64,000 nucleotides of DNA, taken from the NCBI RefSeq assembly GCF_001468085.1, contig NZ_LNZB01000006.1, positions 62,001-126,000 of the forward strand. Direction: 5' to 3'. The notes under the pieces are model-generated. The model worked only from the letters and a program-made list of their open reading frames with translations, was not told where the DNA came from and searched no databases. Positions 17,956-20,590 of the stretch are shown piece by piece. Within the stretch, counting starts at the first letter, position 1. The number at the start of each line of letters is the position of its first letter. The position numbers and the translations under genes are program-made. The stretch comes from Legionella waltersii. GTDB taxonomy: Bacteria; Pseudomonadota; Gammaproteobacteria; Legionellales; Legionellaceae.

Positions 17956-18068
17956 AACAGAAGCGAGGCCTGATGTGAATTATTGTGATAAAAAACCCGT
18001 GATAATTATTCTAAATTTGCTCAATGTGTGTATAATGGGTGCCAAATTGCTGTCTCGGGTCACGATTT

Positions 18069-19331
18069 ATGAATACACTGATTGAATGCTATAAAGCTGG
18101 TTTATTTAAACGACAGTACTGGCTGCAAAACTTGATATCAGGGGTGATAGTGGGTGTAGTGGCACTGCCTTTGGCAATGGCCTTTGCGATAGCATCTGGC
18201 GCTAAACCGGAGCAGGGCTTATACACTGCTATTGTTGCAGGGGTTATTGTATCAATTTTTGGCGGAAGTAAAGTTCAGATTGCTGGTCCAACTGGTGCTT
18301 TCATTGTTATTTTGTCCGGGATTACTGTGCAATATGGTATTTCTGGATTGCAGATAGCTACTTTGATGGCTGGTTTCATCTTGTTGGTGTTCGGACTATT
18401 GCGTCTGGGCTCTGTGATTAAATTCATTCCAGATCCTGTTATTGTAGGCTTTACATCAGGTATTGCTGTTGTGATTTGGGTGGGGCAATGGCAGTATTTT
18501 TTGGGTTTGCCTGAAGTTAGTGGTTCCCATTTTCATGATAAATTGATTGGTCTAGTGCAAGTACTACCGCAATTCCATATTGCAACCACACTTATTGCCT
18601 GCTTTGCTTTAACAATGGTCCTCTTTTCTCATAAAATTCCTGGCTTAAAGCGTATCCCAGGTCCTTTATCTGCTTTAGTTTTGGCGACATTGTTGCAGTA
18701 TGTATTTCAATTTAAAGGAGTTGAGACGATTGGAAGTTTGTTTGGTGGAATCCCTAATGGTTTGCCCAACTTTCAATTGCCTGAACTCACTACGGAGAGG
18801 TTTTATGAGTTATTAAAGCCGGCATTTACCATAGCACTACTGGGTGCAATTGAATCATTACTCTCTGCAGTTGTTGCTGATGGCATGACAGGAGATCGAC
18901 ACAACTCTAACAGGGAGTTGGTTGGGCAGGGGATAGCAAATATTATTTCGCCCTTATTTGGTGGCTTTGCTGCTACAGGAGCAATTGCACGTACAGCGAC
19001 CAATATTCGCAATGGTGGTAATAATCCATTAGCAGGCATTGTCCATGCTTTGACATTAGTTTTAATTATCCTCTTTCTTTCCCCCTTGGCAGTTCATATT
19101 CCATTAGCTGCACTGGCTGCTATTTTGTTTGTTGTTGCTTGGAATATGAGTGAAGTGCATCATTTTGTGGAAATTATTCGTAGTGAACCTAAGTCAAATA
19201 TTGCTGTATTGCTGGTTACTTTTGCAGTAACTGTTCTTGTTGATTTAGTGATGGCAGTTGGGGTTGGGGTACTCATAGCTGGATTGTTTTCTATGGCTTC
19301 TAAGTTACGTTTGTCGCTGAAAAGCGAGTAG
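18069..19331 (+). CDS. SulP-family inorganic anion transporter without a STAS domain
   Basis: A polytopic transporter for sulfate, bicarbonate or another small anion, with SLC26/SulP motifs: LPLAMAFAIASGAKPEQGLYTAI near the N-terminus, FGGSKVQIAGPTGAFIV, and GQGIANIISPLFGGFAATGAIART. From the ATG at 18069 it is 420 residues and ends right after the last membrane helix (ASKLRLSLKSE). Typical SulP proteins continue for about 100 residues into a cytosolic STAS domain, which is absent here, and a repeat begins just after the stop. An upstream GTG at 18039 would add ten residues, but it lies almost on a TATAAT box (18031-18036), which favours the ATG. Substrate unknown. Confidence 0.87.
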   Translation: MNTLIECYKAGLFKRQYWLQNLISGVIVGVVALPLAMAFAIASGAKPEQGLYTAIVAGVIVSIFGGSKVQIAGPTGAFIVILSGITVQYGISGLQIATLMAGFILLVFGLLRLGSVIKFIPDPVIVGFTSGIAVVIWVGQWQYFLGLPEVSGSHFHDKLIGLVQVLPQFHIATTLIACFALTMVLFSHKIPGLKRIPGPLSALVLATLLQYVFQFKGVETIGSLFGGIPNGLPNFQLPELTTERFYELLKPAFTIALLGAIESLLSAVVADGMTGDRHNSNRELVGQGIANIISPLFGGFAATGAIARTATNIRNGGNNPLAGIVHALTLVLIILFLSPLAVHIPLAALAAILFVVAWNMSEVHHFVEIIRSEPKSNIAVLLVTFAVTVLVDLVMAVGVGVLIAGLFSMASKLRLSLKSE

Positions 19332-19388
19332 AACTTATCCGCTCTCTGACGGCTGAGGAATCGACTCCTATTATAGTGCCTCCGCTAA

Positions 19389-19585
19389 TCTCTTCTCTGA
19401 TGGTCAGTAAGCGTAGGTCCGGCGCTTCGCCGAATGGCGCTGCCTACAGCGGCGTCATTCGTGAAAGTAGATGGTTTCGTATCCGCTTGCTGACGCGCGC
19501 GGCTCGGTTCACTCCCTGCTGTGACTAGGAATTGATTCAGAGAGCAAAGAAGAAACCGAGCCGCGACCATGAGGGGCGGATAATA
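19389..19585. repeat. REP-like palindromic repeat related to 10233-10430
   Basis: ATTCGTGAAAG, then TATCCGCTTGCTGACGCGCG plus CGGCTCGG (about 19480-19507), a 45-base spacer, and the complementary CCGAGCCGCG (19556-19565) reproduce the repeat near 10.3 kb. The right arm is degraded here (ACCATGAGGGGCGGAT). The left part GGCGCTTCGCCGAATGGCGC forms its own hairpin. The element fills the SulP-to-hydrolase gap, and I see no gene in it. Confidence 0.72.
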
Positions 19586-19591
19586 TACTAC

Positions 19592-20590
19592 CTATCCATA
19601 CATCGATTGAAACTTATCAAGAACATCGCCATAAAAATGTTGATAAGTATTTATTGAAGTAGGTTCATACAGCTCATTAAACTGGATTTTATCCAAAGGA
19701 ATGACCCTAACTCCTGCCTCGTTAATACTTCTGAAGTAGATGGTCTTAGTCGAGATATCAAATACCATGCTTAGTTGGGTTGGGGTAGCGGTTGCTGGTG
19801 CTTGAGCTACATCACTTAGTGAATTAAAAGCATAGGCAATGCGCTCTTCTTTGGCTACGAAGCTTGGGAGTCTTTTGATGAAATGAGCGGCTCGGACAAA
19901 TCGTGCGTTGGAATCATATCCACCGGGCAACTCTTTGCTACCACCATATTCTTGATAATCACTTAAAAGAGCCAGAGCACTGCGGTAGTCAGAATTTGAG
20001 ACTACTGGTGCTGGGAATGTATCTTGGGTATGGACTACTGACCTCCCATCAACAAACTCTATGAGAGCAGAGTTACCATTCGCATCGTTGACAAGCAATT
20101 GAGCATTCATTACTACGTTTCGATACGTATCAGGCACAAGTTGATAGTTGGCCAAATCATCTATAACTTCTTGAACGGATTGATGATTATCAAGTACATA
20201 TTGTACCCATTCTGAAGTTTTTAAAGTAGGTTGTTCTGGGTTATTAGGATAGCCCGCTGAACCTGTAACAAAAATGGAGGCAGTAAGCCCCTTTTCATTC
20301 ATTCCATTGATTCCAGGACCAGCTTTAAATTTATGTCCACCATGGAATATGATGCTTGCATACTGATTTTTCCACATTAAAGGATGCATTTGGTGGTAAT
20401 CAACACTTGCAACCATCAGCGTGTTTCTCGGATGAATGACAACAGCACCTTCCCTGTACTTCCAGTCGAAATTCATTGCCAGTATCGCGGGAGTATTTTT
20501 CTTAAAAACCAATGCTGTATTGGCATTGAGAGAAAGGGAAACTGTATTTAAAGAAACAGCTATTGATAGTAGTCCTATACGTTTGAACAT
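19592..20590 (-). CDS. Choloylglycine/penicillin-V acylase family protein lacking the catalytic cysteine
   Basis: A 332-residue exported Ntn-hydrolase-fold protein. After a signal peptide ending near Ala23 the sequence runs NTALVFKKNTPAILAMNFDW, aligning with the family start CTRxxY...GRNLDW; Asp42 matches the conserved Asp. Later landmarks include GINGMNEKGLTASIF, MNAQLLVNDANGNSALIEF and YDSNARFVRAAHF with the conserved Arg. The position of the essential N-terminal cysteine is Asn24, and there is no cysteine anywhere in the protein. It may therefore be an inactive binding protein, or use Thr25 after a shifted cleavage. Canonical members hydrolyse bile salts, penicillin V or acyl-homoserine lactones. 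Confidence 0.8.
   Translation of the reverse strand: MFKRIGLLSIAVSLNTVSLSLNANTALVFKKNTPAILAMNFDWKYREGAVVIHPRNTLMVASVDYHQMHPLMWKNQYASIIFHGGHKFKAGPGINGMNEKGLTASIFVTGSAGYPNNPEQPTLKTSEWVQYVLDNHQSVQEVIDDLANYQLVPDTYRNVVMNAQLLVNDANGNSALIEFVDGRSVVHTQDTFPAPVVSNSDYRSALALLSDYQEYGGSKELPGGYDSNARFVRAAHFIKRLPSFVAKEERIAYAFNSLSDVAQAPATATPTQLSMVFDISTKTIYFRSINEAGVRVIPLDKIQFNELYEPTSINTYQHFYGDVLDKFQSMYG

What the first reader, a model, noticed from the sequence alone, without database searches (positions are those of the whole stretch)
19592..20590. Choloylglycine-hydrolase-family protein that lacks the catalytic cysteine and has no cysteine at all
The family's nucleophile is the N-terminal Cys exposed after signal or propeptide cleavage. 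Aligning NTALVFKKNTPAILAMNFDW with CTRxxY...GRNLDW puts Asn24 at that place, and no Cys occurs anywhere in 332 residues. The rest of the active-site framework (Asp42, the late Arg) is kept. It may be a pseudoenzyme (a binding or decoy protein for acyl amides or penicillins), or it may use Thr25 as an Ntn nucleophile after a shifted cleavage.
Basis: partly seen in the sequence, partly recalled or inferred. Interest (0 to 1): 0.7.

Follow-up and report, generated by a model that had tools for sequence, protein, structure and literature searches.

The report
Bile-salt-hydrolase relative without its nucleophile
A probably secreted Legionella-type protein built like bile-salt and penicillin-cutting enzymes has an asparagine where the cutting cysteine should be; some relatives lost that cysteine too, so it probably still binds its target but no longer cuts it.

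Summary
Confirmed. ORF 19592-20590(-) is an intact 332-aa choloylglycine-hydrolase (PF02275) protein with no Cys. Asn24 occupies the nucleophile column: it aligns without gaps to Cys of 61-69% identical orthologues, and in an AlphaFold model residue 24 lies on Cys1/Cys2 of solved PVA/BSH structures. A one-base error is excluded: orthologues read use TGT, the window AAT, with AGT (Ser) in one relative.

It is not alone. Of 26 orthologue clusters, 16 have Cys, 8 Ser, 2 Asn. A separate group of the family keeps Asn-Thr in 7 of 7 members (support 100/98) beside a Cys sister, so the tree needs three origins of Asn. Asp42, Asn98, Asn199, Arg230 and Arg233 are kept in all 17 Cys-less proteins seen.

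The gene lies beside ppsA in eight of eight relatives' loci, evolves no faster than its neighbours, and is the genome's only member. Best reading: an exported Ntn-fold pseudoenzyme that binds an acyl-amide ligand without hydrolysing it. Thr25 as shifted nucleophile is unlikely. Activity and ligand are untested.

The parts
19592..20590 (-). Cys-less choloylglycine-hydrolase-family ORF, 332 aa
   Evidence: sole PF02275 match of the genome at E 0.001
20522..20590 (-). Presumed Sec signal peptide, residues 1-23, ending L-N-A; cleavage would expose Asn24
   Evidence: read from the sequence; Ala23 conserved; helix 2-14 and low confidence at 10-21 in the model. No signal-peptide program was run
20519..20521 (-). 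Codon AAT, Asn24, in the place of the catalytic Cys1/Cys2 (TGT in seven orthologous loci, AGT in one)
20516..20518 (-).
20474..20476 (-). Met39, equivalent of CpBSH Arg18 (Val in all 16 Cys-bearing orthologues)
20465..20467 (-). Asp42, equivalent of CpBSH Asp21, kept
20297..20299 (-). Asn98 of the GMNEKG motif, kept
20267..20269 (-). Val108, equivalent of PaPVA Trp87 / BSH Asn82 (oxyanion-hole position)
   Evidence: alignment (Trp87 by count)
20099..20101 (-). Gln164, where 215 of 217 Cys-bearing proteins have His
19994..19996 (-). Asn199, equivalent of Asn175, kept
19892..19903 (-). Arg230 and Arg233 (RFVR), one of them presumably the Arg228 equivalent, both kept

Best explanation
The gene encodes an exported pseudoenzyme of the choloylglycine-hydrolase family. 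The chain is made with a Sec-type signal peptide; signal peptidase would cut after Ala23 and expose Asn24 where relatives expose the catalytic Cys (inferred from sequence). The Ntn fold (predicted) and the pocket polar residues Asp42, Asn98, Asn199, Arg230 and Arg233 remain (shown by alignment). Without a thiol or hydroxyl at position 1 no acyl-enzyme can form, so the usual amide hydrolysis should be absent (inferred). The retained pocket most likely holds an acyl amide or similar ligand without cutting it, outside the cell after type II secretion, as reported for a choloylglycine hydrolase of L. pneumophila (inferred). The state evolved stepwise: the Arg18 equivalent and the aromatic oxyanion residue were lost while the Cys was still there, then Cys went to Asn, probably via Ser (TGT, AGT, AAT).
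For: Column identity by sequence and structure. Of 26 orthologue clusters 16 Cys, 8 Ser, 2 Asn. Codons TGT in 7 orthologous loci, AGT in 1, AAT in the window. Holding the clade's two Asn rows as one clade is rejected (AU p 0.015). A second group, P0158/P0180-P0184/P0186, has Asn-Thr in 7 of 7 at support 100/98 with the Cys-bearing P0185 as sister; strongly supported branches force three changes to Asn, and all nine Asn rows as one clade are rejected (p 2e-67). The five polar pocket residues are kept in 17 of 17 Cys-less rows. Rates: this gene over concatenated neighbours is 1.59-1.77 on the window's branch, against 1.91-2.58 for L112 and 0.85 for L113: no acceleration. Extra departures at family-conserved columns (window 11 of 47, Cys-bearing rows 4-7; 33 against 6 on terminal branches, binomial p 0.004) suggest that the catalytic constraint itself is relaxed. 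Same gene beside ppsA in 8 of 8 fetched loci. A Cys2Ser CpBSH is called catalytically inactive (PMC12903841, passages). L. pneumophila 130b ORF 12245, 'choloylglycine hydrolase', is 608-fold higher in wild-type than in T2SS-mutant supernatants (PMC12239567, passages); a GspD hit lies in the window's genome.
Against: No ligand, partner or activity was tested; binding is inferred from conservation alone. The Asn may be younger than the window's long branch, in which case the rate comparison says little about the time after the loss. A single origin of all ten Cys-less orthologues is not rejected (AU p 0.09), so 'many losses' within the clade rests on the best tree. Five of the ten Cys-less orthologues depart at 7 of the 47 columns, no more than the highest Cys-bearing row, and His164 is kept in 12 of 17 Cys-less rows, so the relaxation is uneven. 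That ORF 12245 is the orthologue is likely (P0003 is named L. pneumophila; G034, 96% identical to it, has one CBAH match) but not shown. Extra changes at conserved columns also fit loss of all function.
Confidence: 0.6

Rival explanations
1. Loss of use: the gene lost its enzymatic job in this species and is drifting toward a pseudogene, with no binding role.
For: The window departs at 11 of 47 family-conserved columns, the most of any clade member together with P0018; Thr109 and Gln164 are odd at otherwise conserved columns; 18 of 45 genomes of the genus have no PF02275 match.
Against: Full-length frame, no stop; rate relative to neighbours not raised; five polar pocket residues kept; Asn kept through deep divergence in the second group.
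Confidence: 0.2
2. Catalysis without the usual side-chain nucleophile: the free alpha-amino group and Asp42 activate water, or Asn itself takes part, giving a slow or different reaction.
For: Asp42, Asn199 and both Arg are still there; Asn was reached in three lineages, always with Ser/Thr next; Legionella has a precedent of a 'pseudo' enzyme with new chemistry, the pseudokinase SidJ (reference titles seen in PMC10211241).
Against: The oxyanion-hole strand is altered in both Asn groups, though in the window's clade at position 108 also in the Cys-bearing rows; a Cys2Ser change is already called inactivating in CpBSH.
Confidence: 0.1
3. Register shift: cleavage after Asn24 (by signal peptidase or by itself, as nylon hydrolase cuts Asn266/Thr267) exposes Thr25 as an Ntn threonine nucleophile.
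For: 8 of 9 Asn rows are followed by Thr and one by Ser; NylC cleaves at Asn266/Thr267 (PMC6021441, abstract start in the listing).
Against: Ser/Thr at this position is universal also in Cys enzymes; Ala is kept at -1 of the normal site in 16 of 17 Cys-less rows; downstream strand residues align without a gap to Cys relatives; neighbouring strand residues point to opposite faces (general knowledge); both models place the Asn, not the Thr, on Cys1/Cys2.
Confidence: 0.05
4. Sequencing or start-site error hiding a normal Cys.
For: Only one assembly of this genome was read here.
Against: TGT to AAT needs two base changes; no Cys upstream in frame; the 90% cluster P0001 has 2 member sequences on 3 contigs, one of 3.7 Mb (the second member was not read); Asn and Ser forms recur in other clusters.
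Confidence: 0.01

Closest known systems
Choloylglycine hydrolase family (Pfam PF02275, MEROPS C59): Gram-negative BtBSH (3hbc/6ufy), PaPVA (4wl2), AtPVA (5j9r)
   Different: No nucleophile; Arg18 equivalent Met; oxyanion aromatic Trp87 of PaPVA replaced by Val
Laboratory mutants of the family: C1S/C1G PVA of B. sphaericus (2iwm, 2z71), C2A BSH (2rf8, 5gs7), R18L CpBSH (2rg2), C1S Shewanella CGH (5x9i)
   Same: Same positions changed (entry titles)
   Different: Man-made single changes; here the loss is natural and recurrent and comes with pocket changes; none of the titles listed names Asn at position 1
Inactive proteasome alpha and beta subunits
   Same: Natural Ntn-fold proteins that are inactive (PMC9140057, passages)
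   Different: They are thought to scaffold active paralogues; this genome has no other PF02275 protein for it to assist
L. pneumophila 130b ORF 12245, type II secreted choloylglycine hydrolase (PMC12239567, passages)
   Same: Probable orthologue; same family; signal sequence confirmed there by SignalP 6.0
   Different: The L. pneumophila cluster P0003 keeps the Cys; no activity is given in the passages seen

Membership tests
PF02275 choloylglycine hydrolase family (by descent) | Profile match over the curated cut-off along the whole domain | tested here: met
   87.2 bits against 20.4, residues 25-305, profile 2-309 of 316
[quoted passage not shown]
Catalytic BSH/PVA | N-terminal Cys nucleophile | tested here: not met
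   Asn24
Catalytic BSH/PVA | Arg18 that stabilises the thiolate | tested here: not met
   Met39; Val in 16 of 16 Cys-bearing orthologues
Catalytic BSH/PVA | Asn82 (BSH) or aromatic (PVA) at the oxyanion position | tested here: not met
   Val108
Catalytic BSH/PVA | Asp21, Asn175, Arg228 | tested here: met
   Asp42, Asn199, Arg230/Arg233
Catalytic BSH/PVA | NCBIfam equivalog cut-offs for BSH or penicillin V amidase | tested here: not met
   64.8 of 350 and 45.2 of 600 bits
Catalytic BSH/PVA | Hydrolysis of bile salts, penicillin V or acyl-homoserine lactones | not testable with these tools
   needs an assay
Pseudoenzyme | Homologue lacking conserved catalytic motif residues | tested here: met
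   definition in the abstract of PMC10211241; residue losses above
Pseudoenzyme | Retained function under selection | tested here: inconclusive
   rate not raised but age of the loss unknown; dN/dS computation failed
Type II secretion substrate | T2SS-dependent release | not tested
   only the L. pneumophila protein 12245 is reported; GspD hit in own genome

The most novel reading that the evidence does not exclude
Asn-Thr at the mature N-terminus is a new working configuration of the Ntn fold, reached at least three times (once as Asn-Ser): either Asn takes part in new chemistry, or the precursor is trimmed at Asn-Thr to give a threonine Ntn hydrolase inside the choloylglycine-hydrolase family. 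The conserved P0158 group and the window protein would be its members.
Probability: 0.1. Interest if true: 0.85.

Novelty: new variant of a known kind. Interest (0 to 1): 0.5.

Why it matters
Bile salt hydrolases and penicillin V acylases tend to be annotated by family alone, and several of the Ser and Cys orthologues listed here carry one and the same name, linear amide C-N hydrolase or choloylglycine hydrolase. Natural nucleophile loss in this family did not turn up in the literature searches made here. If the Asn forms bind without cutting, they are natural traps for acyl amides and show how an Ntn hydrolase turns into a binding protein step by step, since Cys, Ser and Asn forms of one orthologue survive side by side. 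If they turn out to catalyse something, the family has a chemistry that has not been looked for.

Tried and rejected
Shifted nucleophile (Thr25): weighed and set low; see rivals. Regulator of an active paralogue: rejected for this genome, which has a single PF02275 match. A Cys-loss-specific speed-up of the gene: looked for and not found in the window; with the single gene purB as yardstick the Ser-bearing G029 branch is 4.0 times, the window 3.6, L118 4.5 and L112 2.0, too noisy to use. dN/dS by two methods failed with errors in every comparison and was not repeated; synonymous sites between these species are expected to be saturated. A first version of the column script failed on a print format and was rerun. 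One origin of all ten Cys-less orthologues was not rejected (p 0.09), nor of the eight Ser ones (p 0.20). Placing ORF 12245 on the Philadelphia-1 map was weighed only from recalled locus numbers, without a call, and led nowhere. Literature: no paper holds 'choloylglycine hydrolase' together with 'pseudoenzyme'; the listings of the other eight searches showed no report of natural Cys-less members, but only seven papers were opened, for passages, and subscription journals are mostly not held. The genome scan by alignment kept the best 80 of 374 loci and brought only four Legionella orthologues.

Rows dropped or partial: P0064 (a fragment) was left out of the alignments (119 of 120 proteins); the first search listed 120 of 124 hits; one search used 45 of 120 proteins and left columns 24 and 39 out of the tree, one search used 40 of 245 and left out column 24; one search used all 245, of which 11 have a gap in the column. 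The 33 and 6 were counted by hand from the table. Two notebook lines are too broad and are corrected here: sulP is next to the gene in 6 of 8 loci, not all, and the second Asn group's 51-82% identities are to P0158.

Full report
What is there. The ORF at 19592-20590 on the minus strand encodes 332 residues without a Cys. Three codons separate its Met from the upstream stop, none of them Cys. Pfam PF02275 matches at 87.2 bits, cut-off 20.4; NCBIfam's BSH and PVA equivalog models match far under their cut-offs (64.8 of 350, 45.2 of 600). The closest solved relatives by sequence are choloylglycine hydrolases (5j9r, 3hbc, 6ufy).

How common is the loss? Two searches of about 5.8 billion proteins gave the same 26 clusters of orthologues (P0001-P0026, 56-100% identity). 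Their nucleophile column is Cys in 16, Ser in 8, Asn in 2 (window and P0026). Over all 245 proteins from three searches it is Cys 217, Asn 9, Ser 8, gap 11. Of 52 other loci of the family read from the order, 52 have Cys, with several genes fetched twice. In the genus, 9 of 45 genomes carry the orthologue. So Cys loss, as far as seen, is concentrated in this orthologue group and in one more.

The second group. P0158 (29% identical to the window), P0180-P0184 and P0186 all have Asn-Thr at the presumed start of the mature chain and form one branch (100/98), with the Cys-bearing P0185 next to it; Cys-bearing L. jordanis P0187 lies further out. A model of P0158 (pLDDT 82.0) puts its Asn26 on Cys1/Cys2 as well. 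This group keeps the Arg18 equivalent but replaces the Tyr of the oxyanion strand by Ala, Thr or Pro in all seven. No genome of the order searched holds a member of it: the best of 143 genomes matches P0158 at 49%. Strongly supported branches force three changes to Asn, and all nine Asn proteins as one clade are rejected at p 2e-67; the two of the window's clade held together at p 0.015. The six others are 51-82% identical to P0158; only 106 of 307 columns are invariant in the seven, so an unselected residue would be expected to vary.

How the window got there. Seven orthologous DNA loci have TGT, one Ser locus (G029) AGT, the window AAT, so Cys to Ser to Asn needs one base per step. The best tree needs six changes of state; starred branches force at least two; a single origin of all ten Cys-less orthologues gives p 0.09 and so is not excluded. 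The window groups with the Cys-bearing L. pneumophila and L. norrlandica proteins (100/93), and in an unrooted tree of five neighbour genes it lies on the same side with L112 (96% identical to P0003) and L113 (L. norrlandica) at support 100. ppsA lies next to the gene in 8 of 8 loci and sulP on the other side in 6 of 8: same locus, vertical descent.

Selection. Relative to nine neighbour genes the window's branch in this gene is not long: 0.351 against 0.199, ratio 1.77, while L112 has 1.91; with five genes and one more species, 1.59 for the window, 2.58 for L112, 0.85 for L113. At 47 columns conserved in at least 90% of the 93 other family rows, the window departs at 11 and Cys-bearing orthologues at 4-7. 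Beyond the five columns changed in nearly the whole clade, departures number 33 on Cys-less and 6 on Cys-bearing terminal branches of total length 3.22 and 1.83 (binomial p 0.004; 0.009 after removing those shared by descent). Against this: five of the ten Cys-less rows depart at 7 columns, within the Cys-bearing range. Four of the window's six extra changes sit at the oxyanion strand (Phe107, Thr109), beside Asn199 (Ser198) and at a His column (Gln164) that is His in 215 of 217 Cys-bearing proteins, 5 of 9 Asn and 7 of 8 Ser ones; the other two are Asn75 and Ala78. Reading: the chemistry is less defended, while the protein as a whole is kept. The weak point is that the loss may be recent on the branch.

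How it may work. Export is likely: a signal-peptide-like start, and in L. pneumophila 130b a choloylglycine hydrolase (ORF 12245) ranks second in a table of T2SS-dependent exoproteins, 608-fold (PMC12239567, passages). The orthologue link is likely, not shown. With Asn at position 1 there is no acyl acceptor; CpBSH C2S is called catalytically inactive (PMC12903841, passages). Since neither the BSH Asn nor the PVA aromatic is present, and both were gone before the Cys, the ligand is probably neither a bile salt nor penicillin V (inference). A pocket that binds an acyl amide and does not cut it is the simplest reading. Thr25 is unlikely to replace the nucleophile: Ser/Thr there is the family norm, Ala is kept at -1, and the strand is in register.

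Known or new. Inactive Ntn-fold proteins are known in the proteasome (PMC9140057, passages). In the choloylglycine-hydrolase family I saw only laboratory mutants (titles), and no held paper joins 'choloylglycine hydrolase' with 'pseudoenzyme'. So: a new variant of a known kind.

Noticed in passing
window 19335-19565: A dispersed repeat of about 230 bp, with 39 other copies of 200 bases or more at 86-92% identity in this genome (a lower bound: 40 of 156 candidates were scored; 158 matches with partial ones), ends 26 bases from the stop codon of the Cys-less gene; imperfect inverted arms at 19334-19349 and 19537-19552.
   Followed up: partly
window 18039-19331: The sulphate permease (PF00916) is 430 aa and lacks the C-terminal STAS domain that the relative in L116 has; syntenic copies in six genomes are 543-574 aa counted from the first aligned codon. 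The frame ends just before the repeat.
   Followed up: partly
G087:C59, G118:C1, G035:C280: Three other choloylglycine-hydrolase-family matches in the order carry one in-frame stop each.
   Followed up: no
L149 (G081) and P0027: More distant Cys-bearing relatives already have Val at the Arg18 position, so that loss seems older than the orthologue clade.
   Followed up: partly
not in the window; PMC3220658: A choloylglycine hydrolase is listed there among possible gene transfers involving Parachlamydia and a Legionella-like amoebal pathogen (one passage seen); which paralogue is meant was not checked.
   Followed up: no
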